DNA from: Halochromatium roseum
GTDB taxonomy: Bacteria > Pseudomonadota > Gammaproteobacteria > Chromatiales > Chromatiaceae
Direction: 5' to 3'
DNA length: 64,000 bases
Assembly: GCF_016653315.1 (NCBI RefSeq)
Contig: NZ_NHSH01000070.1
Coordinates: 130,472 to 194,471 of the forward strand
Part shown: positions 11,860 to 57,915 of the stretch, piece after piece
How the letters are laid out: every line of letters starts with the position of its first letter
Numbering within the stretch: position 1 is the first letter of the stretch
Program-made: the position numbers and the translations under genes
Notes under the pieces: model-generated
The model's database searches: none
What the model saw: only the letters and a program-made list of their open reading frames with translations
What the model was told of the DNA's origin: nothing

Positions 11860-14800
11860 ATGGAAACGCATAAGCTAAAGCGATTTGCTCAATATGCCCG
11901 GCGCGCTCTGATTGAACAGGTGGACGCCAAGTTGAAGCTGGTGTTAGCGGCAGAAAGTTTGGCGCGTCGTGAGCATTCGGGGGCGGTTAAAAAACTGGAA
12001 GAAGCGATCCAAAAAAGCGATAAGGAACAGGTCATCGAACGGGTGGCCTATATCTGGTTCAACCGCTTCTGCGCCCTGCGCTTCATGGATGTGAACCGCT
12101 ATAACCGGATGAATGTGGTTTCTCCCGCTGACCCCGGACAGTTTCAGCCGGAGATTTTGACCGAAGCCAAGATGGGCCACATCAACGAGGAGATGGTTCA
12201 CGACAAGGTCCGGCAGCAGATTTTTGCCCTGCTCGATGGCAAAGCGTCTAGCCGCGACCCGCAGGGTGAGGCTTACCGCCTGTTGGTGGTGGCGGTCTGC
12301 AACTTCTGGAACGAGGCGATGCCGTTCCTGTTCCAGCGCATCGACGACTACACGGAGCTGCTGATGCCCGACGATCTGCTCTCGGGCAACTCCATCCTTA
12401 GCCTTATCCGCGAGGCGATGACGCCGGATGCCTGCGAGGATGTCGAGGTGATCGGCTGGCTTTACCAGTTCTACATCTCTGAGAAGAAGGACGAGGTGTT
12501 CGACGGGCTGAAGAAGAATAAGAAGATCACGCCTGAGAACATTCCTGCTGCGACACAGTTGTTTACGCCGCATTGGATTGTGCGCTATCTGGTGGAAAAT
12601 TCGCTTGGGCGGTTGTGGATGCTCAATCGTCCCGGTTCCAGGCTCAGGGAGCGTATGGATTACTACATTGAACCAGGAGAAGAGTTAACCACGGAATACA
12701 CGGAAGGCACGGAAAAAGAAAATAAGAGTAATGATTCCGTGTCGTCCGTGTGTTCCGTGGTTGAAAAGGATTTTCTGGTTGTTTCTTCGCCGGAGGAGAT
12801 CAAGATTTGTGATCCAGCTTGTGGTTCTGGTCACATGCTTACTTATGCCTTTGATCTGCTTTATGCCATCTACGAGGAGGAAGGCTATGAGCCGGCTGAG
12901 ATTCCGGAGAAGATTCTTACGAACAATCTCTTTGGCATCGAGATCGACGAACGCGCCGGGGAGCTGGCGGCCTTTGCGCTGACCATGAAGGCTCGCGCCA
13001 AGCAGCGCCGGTTCTTCAATAAGGGGGTCAAGCCGAACATCTGCGTGCTGGAAAATGTTCGGTTCGATGAGGATGAGCTGAAGGAGTACATGGACTTTGT
13101 CGGGCGCGACCTGTTCACCGCACCGCTGCAAACCACCCTGCGCCAGTTTGAAGAGGCCGACAATTTCGGCTCGCTGATCCGTCCCGATCTCACCGACGTG
13201 GACGGGATGCTGAGAATACTGGAGTCAAAGAACGTCTCTGGGCAGTTGTTTATCAGCATGACCCATCAGAAGGTGCTGCAAGCCCTTCGGCAGGCCGATT
13301 ACCTGAGTCCCAAATACCAAGTGGTGATTGCCAATCCGCCGTATATGGGAGCTAGAAGCATGGCGGGGCGTTTGCAGACATTCGCTAAAGATAGCTATCA
13401 AAACAGTAAGTCCGACCTATTTGCCATGTTCATCGAACGCAATCTAGACCTTGCACAGAAACATGGGGCGATTGCGATGATAACGATGCAAAGTTGGATG
13501 TTCTTGTCATCCTTCGAGGCACTGCGCGCACGGCTTCTGGATCAGAATACACTGCTATCAATGGCTCACCTTGGTGCCAGGGCTTTTGACAGCATTGGCG
13601 GCGAAGTGGTTTCAACCACCACCTTTGTTTTGGAGAATGCTAACCGTCTGGATTACCAGGGTTCCTATCTGAGGTTAGTTGATGGCAATTCTGAAGCAGA
13701 GAAAGATAACGCCATCCGAGAGGCAGTTACGAACCCTTACTGTGGCTGGTTCTATCGTGCCTCAGCTGCTGACTTTAAAAAGATTCCTGGAAGCACAATT
13801 GCGTATTGGGCTACAGATCAAATGCGCCGGGCTTTTGATAGTGGAAAATACCTTTATAATGTTGCAAGTCCTCGGCAAGGAATTGCAACTGCGAATAACG
13901 ACTTGTTTCTCAGGCGTTGGCATGAGCTTTCTTTCGAAAGGATTAACTTTAGCTTGAATAATATAAGAGAAGCTTTGGAGAACGAGGCCAAGTGGCTTCC
14001 ATACAACAAAGGTGGCGACTTTCGGAAATGGTACGGAAATAACGAGTTTGTCATCAATTGGGAGGAAGATGGAAGAGATATTCGTAATTTCCGCGATGAA
14101 AATGGCAAGCAACGATCAGCAATCCGGAACCCTAGCTACTTTTTCCGACCTTCCGTGACATGGACGGACATAAGCGCTTCGGCTTTTGGTGTCCGGAGAT
14201 CGGAAAGAGGTTTTTTGTTTGATGGTTCAAGCCATTCAGCTTTTCCCCCTAAATCCGACCTTGATTTGATTGCCGGTCTGCTGGGATCAAAGACCACATT
14301 CGAGTTCTTGAAAATCATCAATCCGACGATGCATTTCCAGGTTGGAAACGTGGCTTCTGTTCCTGTGAATGAACCGGAAATCAAGGCACAAAGACAGCGG
14401 ATAGAAGAAACCGTTGGAAAACTGGTAGGCTGCGTGAGATGGGACTGGGACTCCTACGAAACCTCTTGGGACTTCACCAGCCTCCCACTACTGAATCCCG
14501 ACTACCACCAACCAACCCTAAGAGCCGCCTTCCAAAACCTCCGCGCTCACTGGCGGGAGATGACGCTGGAGATGCAGCGGCTGGAGCAAGAAAACAACCG
14601 CATTTTCATCGACGCCTACGGCCTGCAGGACGAGCTGCCCCCCGAAGTCCCACTCAACGAAATCACCCTGACCTGCAACCCGCACTACCGCTACGGCAAC
14701 GACAAAAGCGAGGACGAGCTGGAGGCGCTGCTGCTGGCCGACACCATGCGCGAGCTGGTTTCCTATGCGGTGGGATGTATGTTCGGTCGTTACGCGCTGG

Positions 14801-15570
14801 ACAAGCCGGGACTGATCCTCGCCAACCAAGGCGAGACCATCGAGGACTACCACAGAAAGATTCAAACCACGGAACACACGGAACACACGGAAAAAGAAAA
14901 TATTCAAAATCCCCCTTCCGTGTCATCCGTGTATTCCGTGGTTAAAAATGCCTTTCCCGCGGACGAGAACAACGTCATCCCCATACTCGACGGCGACTGG
15001 TTCACCGACGACATCACCGAACGCTTCCGCCAATTCCTCCGCGTCACCTTCGGCAACGACCATTACGAAGAAAACCTCCGCTTCGTCGAGCAAGCCCTGA
15101 ACGTCAAGGGCAAGCGCAACTACAGCATCCGCGACTACTTCCTCGGCGAGTTCTACAACGACCATGTGAAGCGCTACAAAAAGCGGCCCATCTACTGGCT
15201 CTTCTCCAGCCCCAAGGGCAGCTTCAACGCGCTGATCTACATGCACCGCTATCGCCCGGATACGGTCAGCGTGGTACTCAACGACTACCTGCGCGAGTTC
15301 CGCGGCAAACTCAGTACCCGCCTCGACCACCTCCGCGGTGTCGAAGCCAGCGCCGATGCCACCAAGGGCGAGAAGACCAAGGCGCTGAAAGAGATCGAGA
15401 AGCTCAAGAAGACCATCGAAGAGCTCGATGCCTGGGAGCGCGAGGTGATGTACCCCCTGGCCACCGAGCAGGTGGAGATCGACCTCGACGACGGGGTGAA
15501 GGTCAACTATCCAAAGTTCGGCGCGGCGCTGAAGAAGATTCCGGGGCTAGAAGCCAAGAGCGAGGATTGA
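11860..15570 (+). CDS. pglX: BREX adenine-N6 methyltransferase PglX, with two in-frame repeat insertions
   Basis: A 1236-residue SAM-dependent DNA methyltransferase that marks host DNA at the BREX site. Motif I DPACGSGH starts at residue 318 and the catalytic NPPY at 492. The C-terminal lysine-rich helical region is typical. Two peptides foreign to the family interrupt it at about residues 276-301 and 1002-1028. Both are translations of palindromic DNA elements (12687-12762 and 14865-14943) and both keep the frame. The central part, about 13330-14450, covering the target-recognition region, is clearly more AT-rich than the flanks and suggests domain exchange. The start ATG at 11860 has an AGGCTAAGGA ribosome binding site. 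Whether the enzyme tolerates the insertions is unknown. The first lies just before motif I. Confidence 0.93.
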   Translation: METHKLKRFAQYARRALIEQVDAKLKLVLAAESLARREHSGAVKKLEEAIQKSDKEQVIERVAYIWFNRFCALRFMDVNRYNRMNVVSPADPGQFQPEILTEAKMGHINEEMVHDKVRQQIFALLDGKASSRDPQGEAYRLLVVAVCNFWNEAMPFLFQRIDDYTELLMPDDLLSGNSILSLIREAMTPDACEDVEVIGWLYQFYISEKKDEVFDGLKKNKKITPENIPAATQLFTPHWIVRYLVENSLGRLWMLNRPGSRLRERMDYYIEPGEELTTEYTEGTEKENKSNDSVSSVCSVVEKDFLVVSSPEEIKICDPACGSGHMLTYAFDLLYAIYEEEGYEPAEIPEKILTNNLFGIEIDERAGELAAFALTMKARAKQRRFFNKGVKPNICVLENVRFDEDELKEYMDFVGRDLFTAPLQTTLRQFEEADNFGSLIRPDLTDVDGMLRILESKNVSGQLFISMTHQKVLQALRQADYLSPKYQVVIANPPYMGARSMAGRLQTFAKDSYQNSKSDLFAMFIERNLDLAQKHGAIAMITMQSWMFLSSFEALRARLLDQNTLLSMAHLGARAFDSIGGEVVSTTTFVLENANRLDYQGSYLRLVDGNSEAEKDNAIREAVTNPYCGWFYRASAADFKKIPGSTIAYWATDQMRRAFDSGKYLYNVASPRQGIATANNDLFLRRWHELSFERINFSLNNIREALENEAKWLPYNKGGDFRKWYGNNEFVINWEEDGRDIRNFRDENGKQRSAIRNPSYFFRPSVTWTDISASAFGVRRSERGFLFDGSSHSAFPPKSDLDLIAGLLGSKTTFEFLKIINPTMHFQVGNVASVPVNEPEIKAQRQRIEETVGKLVGCVRWDWDSYETSWDFTSLPLLNPDYHQPTLRAAFQNLRAHWREMTLEMQRLEQENNRIFIDAYGLQDELPPEVPLNEITLTCNPHYRYGNDKSEDELEALLLADTMRELVSYAVGCMFGRYALDKPGLILANQGETIEDYHRKIQTTEHTEHTEKENIQNPPSVSSVYSVVKNAFPADENNVIPILDGDWFTDDITERFRQFLRVTFGNDHYEENLRFVEQALNVKGKRNYSIRDYFLGEFYNDHVKRYKKRPIYWLFSSPKGSFNALIYMHRYRPDTVSVVLNDYLREFRGKLSTRLDHLRGVEASADATKGEKTKALKEIEKLKKTIEELDAWEREVMYPLATEQVEIDLDDGVKVNYPKFGAALKKIPGLEAKSED
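12687..12762. repeat. Palindromic MITE-like element inside pglX (copy 1)
   Basis: The left arm at 12687-12714 starts AACCACGGAATACACGG. The right arm at 12735-12762 ends GTGTTCCGTGGTT. The arms are 28 bases each, imperfectly inverted, with about 20 AT-rich bases between them. The element is read in the pglX frame as TTEYTEGTEKE...SVSSVCSVV, with no stop codon. The same arms occur at 14865-14943 and around the GxxExxY gene. Confidence 0.9.
14865..14943. repeat. Palindromic MITE-like element inside pglX (copy 2)
   Basis: The left arm from 14865 (AACCACGGAACACACGG...) and the right arm 14916-14943 (ending GTATTCCGTGGTT) form a second 79-base palindromic element in the same orientation and reading frame as copy 1, giving TTEHTEHTEKE...SVSSVYSVV. 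The sequence differs from copy 1 at several arm positions, so it is not a recent duplicate of it. Confidence 0.9.
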
Positions 15571-19097: not shown

Positions 19098-21611
19098 ATG
19101 GAATCCCGCATCGAGCAGGCGCTACGCCGACTTTTCGACAAGCACCGGATCGTCTTTTGGTACGACGCCAAGCGCGAGCTGCGCGCCGATTTCGAAGCCG
19201 TCTCGCTCGAAGGCGTCGGCAAGCTCGAGATCGCGAACAACGAGTTCGGCATCAAGCACCGCATCTTGCGTGAACAGCCGGATGAGAAGTTCCTGCTGTA
19301 TCGCGATGGGCCGCAGCCGGAGGACCTCGACAACTGGCTGCTCGACGTGCAGCTGGCACAAGGGGAGTTTCGCACCGACCAAGTAGCCATCTGGCTGGCC
19401 GAGCTGGACCTGGGGCTAGAGTTTGCCGATGTCGTTCAGCAGCACCTCGAGTTCTTTCATGCCGCCAAGCGCAAAGAGGCACTGAAGAAGCTGCTCAAGC
19501 CGGACGACACGGCGGGTGTGATCCGGCTCAAGATGGTCGCGGTCTGCGCGGGTGCCGAGCCGCGCATGGACAGCATCCTGGAGAGCCTGCTGCAGGATGT
19601 GGCGGAGAACGCCGACGACCGATTTTCACTGATCACAGGGTGCGCGCTCGATGGGTTTGTCTGGACCCAGTTGACCCGGCACTACGGCTATGCGTCGCCC
19701 GAGCCCAGCATCCGAGACTTTGCGGTCACGCTGTTTAAGGATTGTTACTTCCAGCATTTCACTAGCCACGGGCCACTGACCACAGGCCACCTATCCTCCG
19801 ACGCCTTGGTGTTCCTTAAACGCTGGAAGGACAGCCGCGCGCACGAAGACAGCTTCGAGAAGCTCTCCAACGAATGTGCGGGCGTGCTGGGTATCGAGGC
19901 GGACCTCAGCAAGCGTGATGTTCGCGATCTGATTGAGATCGATTACTTCGAGCTGATCGACCGCAAGATCCTCAGCGATCTGGTCAAGGCGGTGGTCGGT
20001 CGCACGGTCAGCGCCGGTGATGTGGCTTTGTGGGTGCGCCAGCGCCGGCAAGGGCACTGGTACGCCGACTATCGTGATCTCTACGACGCCATCGAGTACG
20101 CCGCCGGCTTCATCCAGCTGCTCGGCGAGGCCAACCTGGAGATGAACAGCCTGGCCGATGGGGTGCAACGCTACTGTGCCACCTGGTACCAGCTCGATCA
20201 GCGTTATCGCAAATTCATCTACCACGTGCGGAAGTCCGGCCAGTCCTCGCTCCTGGAGGCGTTGGCGGAGCAGGTCGAGAACCTGTATTCGACCGCGTAT
20301 CTGCTCAAGGTGAACGATCGCTGGCAGGCGTATGTTGATGCAGTATCGACCTGGGGCATCCCCAGGCTGCGGCCGCAACGCCGGTTCTTCGAGCACTGGA
20401 TACAACCCTTCTTGAGCAAAGGGGTCAAGGTCTGCGTGGTGATTTCGGACGCGCTGCGCTATGAGATCGGCGAGGAGCTGCTGACCCTGATCCGCCAAGA
20501 GGACCGCTACAGCGCGGAGCTGGAGCCGGCACTCTCGACGCTGCCCAGTTACACCCAGCTCGGCATGGCCGCACTCTTGCCCCATCGCGAGCTGACCATC
20601 ACTGACAACGCCGCGGCGGCGGTGCTGGTGGATGGCCTGAGCTCTCAGGGCACGACCAATCGGGACAAGATCCTCAAGACGGCGCTGGACGGGGCGGGGG
20701 CTGCCGTGACGGCGGAGCAATTCATGGCGATGAATCGCGATGATAGCCGCGACCTGCTCAAGTCCAACACGGTCGTCTACGTCTACCACAACTGCATCGA
20801 CCACACCGGAGACAAGATCCATTCGGAAGGTCAGGCGTTCGAGGCGGCCGAGCAGACGCTCCAGGAGCTGCTGCGTTTGGTGAAGAAGCTGACGGCGGCG
20901 AATGCCTCCAACATCCTGATCACGGCCGATCATGGCTTCATCTACCAACACCGGGCGATCGACGATAGCGACTTTTCGGCTGAGGAGCCTGAAGGCGACG
21001 CGATCAGCTACCGGGATCGACGCTTCGTGATCGGCAAGGGATTGCGGCAGAAGCCGGGTCTGAAGCACTTCAGCTCGCAGGCGCTGGGCCTTGCCGGTGA
21101 TCTTGAAGTACAACTGTCCAAGTCGATCAACCGGCTGCGGCTGAAGGGCTCCGGTAGCCGCTTTGTGCATGGCGGTGCCTCATTGCAGGAGGTCATCATC
21201 CCGGTGCTGAAGGTGAACAAGAAGCGCCAGAGTGACGTGACGCAGGTCGAGGTGGACATCCTGCGAGGCGCCAGCTCGGTGATCACCTCCGGGCAGCTTG
21301 CCGTGGTGCTCTACCAGGCCCAGCCGGTGACGGACAAGGTCCAGCCGCGGGCACTGCGAGCCGGCATCTATACCGAAGCCGGTGAGCTGATCTCCGACAG
21401 CCATGAGCTGATCTTCGACCTGACCTCGGACAACCCGCGCGAGCGAGAGCTACAGGTGCGTTTCGTGCTGTCGCGGGCGGCGGATGCTGCCAACAGCAAG
21501 GAGGTAGTGTTGAGGCTCGAGGAGCGGCACGCGGGAACGACGCACTACAAGGAGTACAAGGCGGTGCGCTACCTGATGCGGCGGTCGTTTACCAGCGACT
21601 TTGATTTTTGA
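19098..21611 (+). CDS. pglZ: BREX alkaline-phosphatase-superfamily protein PglZ
   Basis: An 837-residue PglZ, the signature BREX protein. The metal-binding alkaline-phosphatase fold is visible from about residue 455 (VCVVISDALRYEIGEELL), with a nearby TLPSYTQLGM motif, YVYHNCIDHTGDK at about 557, and ILITADHGFIYQ at about 612. The N-terminal half is helical. PglZ is required for both methylation and phage restriction and forms complexes with PglX and BrxB. It starts two bases after the brxU-like stop and is followed directly by the 60-bp repeat array. Confidence 0.95.
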   Translation: MESRIEQALRRLFDKHRIVFWYDAKRELRADFEAVSLEGVGKLEIANNEFGIKHRILREQPDEKFLLYRDGPQPEDLDNWLLDVQLAQGEFRTDQVAIWLAELDLGLEFADVVQQHLEFFHAAKRKEALKKLLKPDDTAGVIRLKMVAVCAGAEPRMDSILESLLQDVAENADDRFSLITGCALDGFVWTQLTRHYGYASPEPSIRDFAVTLFKDCYFQHFTSHGPLTTGHLSSDALVFLKRWKDSRAHEDSFEKLSNECAGVLGIEADLSKRDVRDLIEIDYFELIDRKILSDLVKAVVGRTVSAGDVALWVRQRRQGHWYADYRDLYDAIEYAAGFIQLLGEANLEMNSLADGVQRYCATWYQLDQRYRKFIYHVRKSGQSSLLEALAEQVENLYSTAYLLKVNDRWQAYVDAVSTWGIPRLRPQRRFFEHWIQPFLSKGVKVCVVISDALRYEIGEELLTLIRQEDRYSAELEPALSTLPSYTQLGMAALLPHRELTITDNAAAAVLVDGLSSQGTTNRDKILKTALDGAGAAVTAEQFMAMNRDDSRDLLKSNTVVYVYHNCIDHTGDKIHSEGQAFEAAEQTLQELLRLVKKLTAANASNILITADHGFIYQHRAIDDSDFSAEEPEGDAISYRDRRFVIGKGLRQKPGLKHFSSQALGLAGDLEVQLSKSINRLRLKGSGSRFVHGGASLQEVIIPVLKVNKKRQSDVTQVEVDILRGASSVITSGQLAVVLYQAQPVTDKVQPRALRAGIYTEAGELISDSHELIFDLTSDNPRERELQVRFVLSRAADAANSKEVVLRLEERHAGTTHYKEYKAVRYLMRRSFTSDFDF

Positions 21612-21757
21612 CCACGGAATACACGGAAGGCACGGAAATGGTGGTTGAAATATGAAGAAGAGAGTTTTTGACTACGGAATACACGGAGGGCACGGAAATG
21701 GTGGTTGAAATATGAAGAAGAGAGTTTTTGACTACGGAATACACGGAGGACACGGAA
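21607..21757 (+). repeat. 60-bp tandem repeat array carrying arm sequence and ribosome binding sites
   Basis: Three copies with an exact 60-base period start at 21607, 21667 and 21727. Each begins with the palindrome arm (ACCACGGAATACACGG or ACTACGGAATACACGG), then a purine-rich GGAAGG, GGAGGG or GGAGGA, then CACGGAAATG. In copies 1 and 2 the ATG opens a five-codon frame ending in TGA. In copy 3 it is the start of the GxxExxY gene. The array starts at the very end of pglZ (stop 21609-21611). Confidence 0.9.
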
Positions 21758-22135
21758 ATGGGTAAATTGAAATATGAAGAAGAGAGTTATCGGATACGAG
21801 GTGCTGTTTTTGAGGTGTACCGCGAAATGGGGTGCGGTTTTCTCGAAGCTGTTTATCAAGAGTGCTTGGAGAAAGAGTTAAGGAGAGCGAGTATCCCATA
21901 TGTTGCACAGCAGGAGATTGTGCTTCATTACAAAAATGAGACATTAAAGCAAACTTATCGGCCCGACTTCATCTGTTATTCAAAAATTATTGTTGAGCTG
22001 AAAGCCGTTAAAGAACTCGGCAACGAGCATCGTGCTCAAACACTCAATTACCTAAAAGCGACTGGGCATGAGCTAGCATTGCTAGTCAATTTCGGTTACT
22101 ACCCAAAGGCCGAAATAGAAAGAATCGTTCTATGA
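21758..22135 (+). CDS. GxxExxY protein (PD-(D/E)XK-like), carried between repeat arms
   Basis: A 125-residue GxxExxY family protein: the name motif GFLEAVY is at 27-33, and a PD-(D/E)XK-like core is formed by RPDF (68-71) and VELK (79-82). The biochemical function is unknown; the motif pattern suggests a nuclease fold. I choose the ATG at 21758 because the repeat supplies GGAGGA seven bases upstream. A TTG ten codons earlier would only add arm-encoded residues. GC content is much lower than that of its neighbours. It is flanked on the left by the palindrome arm array and on the right by the inverse arm at 22201-22228. It is not a core BREX gene and separates pglZ from brxL. Confidence 0.85.
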   Translation: MGKLKYEEESYRIRGAVFEVYREMGCGFLEAVYQECLEKELRRASIPYVAQQEIVLHYKNETLKQTYRPDFICYSKIIVELKAVKELGNEHRAQTLNYLKATGHELALLVNFGYYPKAEIERIVL

Positions 22136-22200
22136 ACCTTTGCGCTTATTCTGTATGTTATTAATATTCCAATTCCCAAATTTCCCACATAATTCATTTT

Positions 22201-22228
22201 TTCCGTGTATTCAGTGTATTCCGTGGTT
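22201..22228 (-). repeat. Right inverted arm after the GxxExxY gene
   Basis: TTCCGTGTATTCAGTGTATT followed by CCGTGGTT is the inverse partner of the arm at the start of the 60-bp array. Together the arms enclose the GxxExxY gene. They match both arms of the two short elements inside pglX. A further partial arm (TTCCGTAGTT) follows at about 22242, and brxL begins at 22260. Confidence 0.85.
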
Positions 22229-22259
22229 AAAAATCTTCATCTTCCGTAGTTAAACTCAA

Positions 22260-24329
22260 GTGAATGTTCTTGATAAAAAAATAACCCAGTGGTTTCCCGG
22301 CCTCGTCGTGCGAAAGGACCTGGTCAAGGCCGTCAAGGGCAATGCCATCGTTCCATCCTACGTGCTCGAATATCTCCTTGGCCAGTACTGCGCGACCAGT
22401 GACGAGCCAACCATTCAGACCGGCATCGAGACGGTCAAGGAGATCCTGCGCAAACACTTCGTGCACCGCAACGAGGCCGGCTTGGTCCGCTCCAACATCA
22501 AGGAGAAGGGACGCTACAAGGTCATCGATAAGGTCAGTGTCGCGCTGAACGAGAAGACCGATGCCTATGAGGCCGAGTTTTCCAACCTGGGCATCAAGAA
22601 GGTGCTGGTGGACTCGGACACCGTTAAGGCGCACCCGAAACTGCTGGTCAGTGGCGTCTGGTGCATCTGCGACATCGAGTACCAGTTCACCGAGGACAAT
22701 CGTGCTACGCCCTGGATGCTCTCGACCCTGAAGCCGATCCAGCTCTCGCACTTTGATTTTGACGCCTACCTGGAGGCGCGACGGCAGTTTTCGCTGGATG
22801 AGTGGATCGACCTCTTGGTTCAGAGCATGGGCTTTAACCCGGAGCTGTTCGGTCGCCGCAGCAAGCTGACCCAACTGATCCGGCTGATCCCGTTCTGCGA
22901 GCGCAACTACAACCTGATCGAGCTGGGACCCAAGGGAACCGGTAAGTCACACATCTTCTCCGAGTTCTCCCCGCACGGGATATTGATCTCCGGTGGCGAG
23001 GTGACGGTGCCGAAGCTGTTCGTCAACAACTCGACCGGCAAGATCGGGCTGGTGGGCTACTGGGACGTGGTGGCCTTTGACGAGTTTGCCGGTAAGCAGA
23101 AGCGTGCGGATAAGGCGCTGGTCGATATCCTGAAGAACTACATGGCGAACAAGTCGTTCTCCCGCGGGATCGAGACCTTGGGCGCGGAGGCGTCGATGGT
23201 ATTCGTCGGCAACACCCGTCATGCCGTGCCCTACATGCTCAAGCACTCGGACCTGTTCGAGGAGCTGCCGGACAGGTTTTACGACTCAGCCTTCCTGGAC
23301 CGATTGCATTGTTATGTGCCGGGCTGGGAGGTCGATATCATCCGCAACGAGATGTTCTCGAACGGCTATGGCTTTGTCGTCGACTACCTGGCCGAGATCC
23401 TGCGCTCCTTGCGCGATCACGACTTCTCAGACCGATACAAGCCGCATTTCAGCCTGTCCTCCGACATCTCGACCCGGGATCGCGACGGCATTCACAAGAC
23501 CTTCTCCGGGTTGATGAAGATCCTGTTTCCGCATGACGGCGCGACCAGCGAGGAGGTCGAGGAGTTGCTGCGCTTCTCGATGGAGGGGCGAAAACGCGTC
23601 AAGGATCAGTTGATGCGCATCGATTCCACCTATGCCGCGGTGGCGTTCCACTACAGCGACGCGCAAGGCACCGAGAAGGTCGTGACCACGCTTGAGGAGG
23701 TCGAGTACCCACACCACTACCACCGAACCATTGCGGAAGCGGAACCGGATGTCGCGGGAAGGCCGGCGCTGGCAGAGCAGGGGGCAGCCGCGTCGCAGAA
23801 CACACAGGACGCGGCTGGCGGCACAGACGATGCGGCTGGCCCGAAAGAAGGGCATCTGACCTTTATCGAGAACCAAAAGGGCGTGACCTACGACACGCTG
23901 TTCGGACCCTACGTTCGTGGCGCGAGCCGCATCACCGTCACCGATCCCTATATCCGGCTGTTCTATCAGGTCCGCAACTTTATGGAGTTCGTGGAAACCG
24001 TGGTTCGCCAGAAGGAGCCGGGCGAGGAGGTGTCGATCAGGCTCGTCACCGTCGAAGATGACTTCAGGGGCGAGCAGCAGCGCGACAATCTTGGCAAAAT
24101 CAAGGAGGCCTGCGAGGCCATCGACATCAACTTCGACTGGGAGTTTGACCAGTCAAAATCGATCCATGCCCGCCACATCGTCACCGACACGGGCTGGAAG
24201 ATCGCGCTCGACCGGGGCCTCGACATCTTCCAGCACTACGAGATGAACGAGGCCTTTGCCTTCGCGAACCGCCTGCAGCAGTTACGGCCGTGCAAGGCGT
24301 TTGAGGTGACTTATCTTCGGCAGAAATGA
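22260..24329 (+). CDS. brxL: BREX Lon-like AAA+ protein BrxL with MITD1-like C-terminal domain
   Basis: A 689-residue protein of the TIGR-type BrxL family. The Walker A motif GPKGTGKS is at residues 223-230, with VVAFDEFAGK as Walker B at about 272. BrxL forms an MCM-like DNA-binding ring in characterised systems and is needed for phage restriction. After a low-complexity Ala/Gly linker (about 495-528), residues 530-689 resemble the phospholipase-D-like C-terminal domain of eukaryotic MITD1: SIHARHI, GWKIALDRGLDIF and a final RPC motif match in order. The start is GTG at 22260, just after repeat arms. Whether the C-terminal domain binds membranes here is unknown. Confidence 0.9.
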   Translation: MNVLDKKITQWFPGLVVRKDLVKAVKGNAIVPSYVLEYLLGQYCATSDEPTIQTGIETVKEILRKHFVHRNEAGLVRSNIKEKGRYKVIDKVSVALNEKTDAYEAEFSNLGIKKVLVDSDTVKAHPKLLVSGVWCICDIEYQFTEDNRATPWMLSTLKPIQLSHFDFDAYLEARRQFSLDEWIDLLVQSMGFNPELFGRRSKLTQLIRLIPFCERNYNLIELGPKGTGKSHIFSEFSPHGILISGGEVTVPKLFVNNSTGKIGLVGYWDVVAFDEFAGKQKRADKALVDILKNYMANKSFSRGIETLGAEASMVFVGNTRHAVPYMLKHSDLFEELPDRFYDSAFLDRLHCYVPGWEVDIIRNEMFSNGYGFVVDYLAEILRSLRDHDFSDRYKPHFSLSSDISTRDRDGIHKTFSGLMKILFPHDGATSEEVEELLRFSMEGRKRVKDQLMRIDSTYAAVAFHYSDAQGTEKVVTTLEEVEYPHHYHRTIAEAEPDVAGRPALAEQGAAASQNTQDAAGGTDDAAGPKEGHLTFIENQKGVTYDTLFGPYVRGASRITVTDPYIRLFYQVRNFMEFVETVVRQKEPGEEVSIRLVTVEDDFRGEQQRDNLGKIKEACEAIDINFDWEFDQSKSIHARHIVTDTGWKIALDRGLDIFQHYEMNEAFAFANRLQQLRPCKAFEVTYLRQK

Positions 24330-57879: not shown

Positions 57880-57915
57880 TAAGTGGTTAGTGGTTAGTGG
57901 TTAGTGGTTAGTTGT
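57880..57915. repeat. 8-bp tandem repeat GTGGTTAG
   Basis: Four units of GTGGTTAGTG-type sequence lie between the MotA- and MotB-like genes. Probably a slippage product; it could shift spacing or expression between the two genes. Confidence 0.7.

What the first reader, a model, noticed from the sequence alone, without database searches (positions are those of the whole stretch)
21607..22228. GxxExxY gene enclosed by the same inverted arms that form short palindromic elements inside pglX
Seen directly: the arm (core ACCACGGAATACACGG) begins at 21609, and its inverse ends at 22228. Between them is one AT-rich GxxExxY gene with a PD-(D/E)XK-like core. The same arm pair, only 20-23 nt apart, forms 76-79 bp elements at 12687-12762 and 14865-14943. 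Inference: the long copy is an autonomous or helper element whose nuclease-like protein recognises the arms, and the short copies are internally deleted MITE-like derivatives. GxxExxY proteins have no assigned function, so this would give the family a role.
Basis: partly seen in the sequence, partly recalled or inferred. Interest (0 to 1): 0.85.

Follow-up and report, generated by a model that had tools for sequence, protein, structure and literature searches.

The report
Nuclease gene with matching palindromic repeats
A small nuclease-like gene of unknown function sits between mirrored repeat arms in the window and in most of the relatives examined from many bacterial groups and some archaea, and nearby gene-less palindromes tend to carry the same repeat word, so gene and repeats look like one tiny mobile DNA system.

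Summary
The GxxExxY gene (PF13366, catalytic residues almost invariant) is framed by inverted arms built of repeated 7-mers (CRCnRAx) every 8-10 nt. 59 of 75 GxxExxY genes from many phyla have strong inverted flanks against 11 of 1744 control ORFs; 166 of 199 unique elements reach a lower threshold. Unit letters differ between elements, but the 7th letter follows the protein subtype: 6 changes on the protein tree against 36 after shuffling; 34 of 37 concordant inside genomes with mixed types. Gene-less palindromes share the unit of the neighbouring gene more than by chance. In the window's BREX operon relatives show empty sites; one has another GxxExxY subtype with its own arms at the same pglZ/brxL junction, and arms of only its two resident types. 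Best reading: a REPIN/RAYT-like selfish element whose arm-recognising enzyme is a PD-(D/E)XK nuclease. Binding, cutting and movement are inferred. Against: arms occur in 12 of 267 genomes without the gene (one has 21), and short copies show no gene remnant. No paper describing this was found in ten searches of one open library.

The parts
21758..22135 (+). GxxExxY gene, 125 aa, PD-(D/E)XK nuclease fold; near-invariant residues E30, D70, E80, K82, Q94
   Evidence: AF2 model mean pLDDT 95; residue counts in 203 relatives
21605..21784 (+). three tandem 60-bp copies, each carrying one left arm (21605-21664, 21665-21724, 21725-21784; the last runs into the gene start)
21611..21638 (+). outermost left arm, units CACGGAA at 9-nt spacing
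22200..22228 (-). right arm, inverse of the left arm; inverted identity continues to 22235
   Evidence: I3
22242..22254 (-). short second right-arm-like remnant (inverse of TTTGACTACGGAA)
   Evidence: I7, I8
12687..12762 (.). gene-less palindrome, unit CACGGAA, in frame in pglX; the site is empty in 5 relatives and holds a CACGAAA palindrome in G410
14865..14943 (.). gene-less palindrome, unit CACGGAA, in frame in pglX; the site is empty in 7 relatives and holds CACGAAA palindromes in G410 and G480
11860..15570 (+). pglX, host gene of both palindromes, open through both
19098..21611 (+). pglZ, left neighbour of the element
22260..24329 (+). brxL, right neighbour of the element

Best explanation
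The gene and its arms are one selfish element. The GxxExxY protein is a small PD-(D/E)XK nuclease that recognises its own arms, which are inverted blocks of about three to four 7-mer units, and promotes copying of arm-bounded DNA to new places. Elements with the gene are the autonomous form; short palindromes made of two arms and a short loop are non-autonomous copies moved in trans, as REPINs are proposed to be by RAYTs. Shown: the gene/arm unit, arm type following protein type, gene-less palindromes sharing the local unit, empty and occupied sites, and an almost invariant catalytic set. Inferred: binding of the 7-mers, cutting of hairpin, cruciform or target, and copying by repair of the cut.
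For: Flank test 59 of 75 against 11 of 1744 control ORFs; 26 of 29 at score 26 or more in a separate Pseudomonadota set; 166 of 199 overall at 26. The 7th unit letter changes 6 times on a 138-protein tree against a mean of 36 (minimum 31) in 200 shuffles. Inside 10 genomes with mixed types 34 of 37 elements are concordant, shuffle mean 19.7, p 5e-5. Gene-less palindromes have exactly the resident unit in 51% against 22% permuted, p 0.0006, n 35. In 31 genomes of one family T-type arms average 22.0 in 6 T-gene carriers (5 have any) and 0.96 in 25 others (6 have any), p 4e-4 (counts include the arms at the genes and tandem runs). A second protein family, PF05635, has its own different arms: 15 of 30 score 26 or more, all 15 with best lag 7 or 14, 0 with CRCnRAx pairs. 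Empty and occupied sites in the same operon. D70 in 203 of 203, E30 in 201 of 202, K82 in 199 of 203, E80 in 193 of 203. Nearest solved folds are PD-(D/E)XK nucleases.
Against: No cutting, binding or transposition is observed. Three-unit arms occur without the gene in 12 of 267 genomes, 21 in G089 (one of the 12, G238, is a direct tandem array). For G-type arms the carrier contrast inside one family is weak (p 0.06; the carrier mean includes 25 hits of tandem arrays in G082). Independent residue/arm switches are too few to separate recognition from joint inheritance. Exact insertion ends are unknown and no target duplication was seen. The window protein finds relatives in only 8 of 72,556 plasmid records and none of 50,697 phage records by tblastn, so spread between hosts is unexplained. 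In G410 one pair of arms brackets native pglZ sequence, which a simple internal-deletion model does not predict.
Confidence: 0.66

Rival explanations
1. The gene is a hitchhiker or domesticated guard: arms and palindromes are moved by another enzyme elsewhere in the cell, and the GxxExxY protein binds arms for another purpose such as restraining or resolving hairpins.
For: Arms exist in genomes without the gene (12 of 267); the fold also weakly resembles the resolvase ST1444 (E 0.03).
Against: 38 of 43 convergent arm pairs 150-1800 bp apart in the 80 loci (loci chosen for holding the gene) contain it, and the longest ORFs of the other 5 are not GxxExxY and share no evident cargo; arm type follows this protein even inside one genome.
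Confidence: 0.15
2. Homing-type element: the nuclease cuts the empty site and repair copies the element in; palindromes are by-products.
For: Repeated occupation of the same pglX linkers and the same pglZ/brxL junction; the homing endonuclease I-Bth0305I is among weak fold hits (E 0.05).
Against: The occupied sites share no obvious sequence by eye, and the pglZ/brxL slots used by the two subtypes differ by a few bases; permissive linkers can explain the reuse.
Confidence: 0.12
3. The arms act on RNA or regulation (mRNA hairpin, terminator) and the protein is an RNA endonuclease acting on these hairpins; the association is operonic, not mobile.
For: The hairpins are strong (folded as DNA); tRNA splicing endonucleases are weak fold hits (E 0.04 and above).
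Against: Empty sites in 4 to 7 relatives; palindromes sit inside open reading frames of pglX, and in G410 of pglX, pglZ and brxL.
Confidence: 0.05

Closest known systems
REPIN / RAYT system (REP doublets forming hairpins with REP-associated tyrosine transposases; PMC3116915, abstract and passages seen)
   Same: Gene flanked by palindromic repeats; gene-less inverted repeat doublets in the same genome; several types per genome, each next to its own enzyme.
   Different: The enzyme is a PD-(D/E)XK nuclease, not a Y1 transposase; arms are blocks of 7-mer units every 8-10 nt; palindromes also lie inside coding genes.
Rickettsia palindromic elements (RPE; passages of the review PMC10969869)
   Same: Short palindromic elements inserted in frame in unrelated protein genes.
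   Different: RPE are given as about 150 bp in Rickettsia; the passages seen name no enzyme. Sequence kinship was not tested.
MITEs (review PMC10969869, passages seen; general definition recalled)
   Same: Short, gene-less, inverted-repeat, multi-copy, presumably moved in trans.
   Different: No parent transposon with a known transposase, and no target-site duplication seen.
PF05635 23S_rRNA_IVP four-helix-bundle genes
   Same: Small single gene framed by inverted periodic arms (found here).
   Different: A different Pfam family; heptad arms (lag 7 or 14) without CRCnRAx pairs.

Membership tests
GxxExxY / PDDEXK_3 protein family (TIGR04256, PF13366) | Score above the curated cut-off, whole domain matched | tested here: met
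   139.6 bits against 35 and 141.2 against 22
GxxExxY / PDDEXK_3 protein family (TIGR04256, PF13366) | PD-(D/E)XK catalytic residues and fold | tested here: met
REPIN/RAYT | Y1 tyrosine transposase gene between the repeats | tested here: not met
   the gene matches only PF13366 and TIGR04256 at E 0.001
REPIN/RAYT | Inverted, gene-less repeat doublets sharing repeats with the flanks of the gene | tested here: met
MITE | Target-site duplication | tested here: inconclusive
   both window pglX sites show a net gain of 26 codons (78 nt) against the M. koyamae protein, close to the 76 and 79 nt between arm ends, so little room for one; the ends are not exactly known
MITE | Same termini as an autonomous element of the genome | tested here: met
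   same units as the GxxExxY element of the same operon and locus statistics; that the gene-bearing element is autonomous is inferred
Rickettsia palindromic elements | Palindrome inserted in frame in a protein gene | tested here: met
   two in pglX; in G410 also in pglZ and brxL
Rickettsia palindromic elements | Sequence kinship with RPE families of Rickettsia | not tested
   no RPE sequence was compared
Homing endonuclease | Cuts the empty site | not testable with these tools
   needs the enzyme

The most novel reading that the evidence does not exclude
A distinct class of prokaryotic selfish element, present in many bacterial phyla and in archaea: one PD-(D/E)XK nuclease gene between arms of iterated 7-mer words, with a protein-to-word code (7th letter G with a serine, T mostly with a lysine, after the GxxE glutamate) and swarms of non-autonomous palindromes, paralleled by an unrelated four-helix-bundle family with its own heptad arms.
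Probability: 0.5. Interest if true: 0.92.

Novelty: new variant of a known kind. Interest (0 to 1): 0.85.

Why it matters
It would give a role to a widespread protein family without one, name the likely enzyme behind a common kind of periodic palindrome in prokaryote genomes, and offer a protein/DNA word code that can be tested directly. It would also show a nuclease doing what transposases are thought to do for REPINs, and a natural source of in-frame peptide insertions in proteins such as PglX, PglZ and BrxL.

Tried and rejected
Chance or ordinary repeats: rejected by the control ORFs (these are six-frame ORFs of 300-1500 nt at least 800 nt away in the same loci, many overlapping, so not independent) and by 0 hits for the reversed 16-mer. 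In one search the reversed/complemented control gave 23 against 181 arms; it is not independent, because the motif read backwards partly matches itself. Swapping left and right flanks between loci still gave 300 of 2000 scores of 30 or more, because many loci share one unit.

Plasmid or phage carriage as the vehicle: 8 plasmid records, no phage record (one query protein, tblastn), one viral contig. Yet viral proteins of the same fold exist: the best BFVD hits are G8DDC4 (E 2e-11) and a nuclease of Halogranum tailed virus 1 (E 1e-9), and one algal virus paper lists a GxxExxY protein (passage).

Residue-to-letter code as proof of recognition: the independent-pairs test had 5 usable pairs and cannot decide.

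Loss of the gene in G089, which has arms but no gene: the search of its family returned only that genome.

Literature: ten searches gave no paper linking this family to repeats; I saw listings, plus passages of PMC8934634, PMC12085832, PMC10969869 and PMC3116915. Only this open library was searched.

Full report
What is in the window. Between pglZ (19098-21611) and brxL (22260-24329) of a BREX-1 operon lies a 125-codon gene, 21758-22135, that matches PF13366 and TIGR04256 strongly. It is AT-rich (41.8% GC in a 61.4% window) and the only member found in its 5.17 Mb genome. It is framed by inverted arms of unit CACGGAA at 9-nt spacing. The left arm is present three times because of a 60-bp tandem triplication. 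Two gene-less palindromes with the same unit lie in pglX, in frame; three more, with near-identical flanks to each other, lie on another contig.

Is it general? Among the family matches in the window's relatives 18 of 23 loci (own and partial genes included) score 26 or more in the inverted-flank test (counted from the printed scores). Of 80 loci from the public genome collection (Cyanobacteria, Chloroflexota, Planctomycetota, Bacteroidota, Proteobacteria, Methanosarcinales and others), 75 had enough flank; 59 score 30 or more against 11 of 1744 ORFs elsewhere in the same loci. These 80 are the best matches to one subtype, not a random sample. A separate set of 29 loci from Pseudomonadota genomes gave 26 at 26 or more and 24 at 30 or more. 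After adding paralogs, 248 loci gave 203 unique elements, 199 with flanks; 166 reach 26 and 150 reach 30. Of the 33 below 26 several show arms by eye in the printed upstream stretch (for example L058, L064, L087, L160), others show none there (for example L181, L241, L248). Of 494 steps of up to 14 nt between neighbouring units 473 are 8, 9 or 10 nt.

Arm type goes with protein type. For 138 of the 199 elements a 7th unit letter could be called (99 G, 32 T, 6 A, 1 C); the rest were dropped. On the protein tree it changes 6 times, against a mean of 36 and a minimum of 31 in 200 shuffles. Of 134 elements with a readable motif the residue after the GxxE glutamate is serine in 95 of 97 with letter G and is not serine in 33 of 37 with another letter. 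The 2nd and 5th letters vary faster (35 and 24 changes). In 10 genomes that hold both residue types 34 of 37 elements agree, against 19.7 by shuffling inside genomes, p 5e-5. This speaks against a genome-wide repeat bias as the cause. It does not prove recognition, since gene and arms may simply be inherited together; the independent-pairs test had too few pairs.

Gene-less copies. In the 80 loci 37 convergent gene-less pairs were counted (some share an arm) in 17 loci, against 8 in the opposite orientation; of 35 with a resident consensus 51% have exactly the resident unit against 22% permuted, p 0.0006. Of 43 convergent arm pairs 150-1800 bp apart 38 hold the GxxExxY gene of the locus. In 299 Pseudomonadota genomes 32 have the gene and 26 have three-unit arms that begin with CACAGAG; 14 have both, Fisher p 6e-9, not corrected for kinship. 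Inside family f57 (which contains Mariprofundus sp. EBB-1, since G100 and G367 show the same places) this is 12 of 17 against 7 of 14, p 0.29. There T-type arms track T-type genes (mean 22.0 in 6 carriers, one of which has none, and 0.96 in 25 others, p 4e-4), while G-type arms do so weakly (7 of 11 carriers and 9 of 20 others have any, p 0.06). Subtypes were assigned from the fetched loci; partial genes were not typed; counts include arms at the genes and tandem runs. G089 has 21 arms and G346 five, without a gene.

Sites in the BREX operon. The pglX2 site is empty in seven relatives and holds CACGAAA palindromes in G410 and G480; pglX1 is empty in five and holds a CACGAAA palindrome in G410, with no clear site in two loci. 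Net gain at both window sites is 26 codons against M. koyamae. At pglX2 the arm is read in a different frame in the window and in G410, which speaks for separate insertions into one permissive linker. At pglZ/brxL four relatives are empty, two have no clear site, one has a different ORF of 171 aa without arms of this type (L314), and G410 has a GxxExxY gene of another subtype (GHGLLEKPYENALCV, read from the ORF) with CACAGAT arms. G410 has a second GxxExxY gene just upstream of pglX (PF13366, E 1e-43) with CACGAAA arms. In the 16 kb taken from G410 all arm hits are of these two types. They lie in frame in pglX (two), pglZ (one palindrome, and one arm pair that brackets about 170 nt of native pglZ) and brxL (one).

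A parallel system. PF05635 four-helix-bundle genes, used as a control family, have inverted arms of their own: 15 of 30 reach 26, all 15 with best lag 7 or 14 and none with CRCnRAx pairs, against 130 of 166 PF13366 elements with such a pair in the left arm. Arm class therefore goes with the protein family.

The protein. The model is confident (mean pLDDT 95). Its nearest solved folds are SSO0001 (E 1e-4, TM about 0.6; a Cas4 nuclease, label recalled), the LHK exonuclease (E 1e-3) and, weakly, a Holliday resolvase. E30, D70, E80, K82 and Q94 are almost invariant in 203 relatives, so an active nuclease is likely. No solved structure matches by sequence at E 1.

Mechanism and precedent. The best reading is an autonomous nuclease element with trans-mobilised palindromes; arm binding, cutting and repair-based copying are inferred. 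The comparison with REPIN/RAYT rests on the abstract and passages of PMC3116915, and with RPE and MITEs on passages of PMC10969869. The word GxxExxY occurs in two held papers, neither on repeats as far as the passages show.

Noticed in passing
L127-L156 (own genome: L127, L146, L154): PF05635 four-helix-bundle genes: 15 of 30 are framed by inverted heptad arms (AGTTATC, AGTGGTT, GGGTTCG and the like), a second, unrelated gene-plus-arm system.
   Followed up: partly
L313 6054-6283 (G410, inside pglZ): A CACGAAA left arm and right arm, both in frame, enclose about 170 nt of native pglZ instead of a loop or a gene: arms can bracket host DNA.
   Followed up: partly
window 57882-57912: AGTGGTT x 4.4 tandem heptads, the same word as the arms of the four-helix-bundle gene L127 of this genome.
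   Followed up: no
L314 8583-9098 (G534) at the pglZ/brxL junction: A 171-aa ORF without arms of this type occupies the same junction in another relative, so this slot takes in different cargo.
   Followed up: partly
L073 3243-4068: CACAGAG arms frame a different ORF of 154 aa (looks like a GIY-YIG or T5orf172 type protein, label recalled).
   Followed up: no
G089 (L229-L231), G346 (L232): Genomes with 21 and 5 CACAGAG arms but no PF13366 gene.
   Followed up: partly
window 21745-21760: The innermost left arm contains GGAGG 8 nt before the start codon, so the arm may supply the ribosome-binding site.
   Followed up: no
G000 C57 256853, 258860, 261319 (L020): Three CACGGAAGA palindromes share near-identical flanks, so one insertion was probably multiplied with a larger repeated segment.
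   Followed up: no
G238 C1 3238629-3239262: CACAGAG-like units in direct tandem orientation, probably a coding repeat, unrelated to the palindromes.
   Followed up: no
G078 C1 232589-232695 and G070 C25 181640-181726: Long single-orientation runs of CACAGAT units at 10-nt spacing in two genomes: arms can expand as tandem arrays.
   Followed up: no
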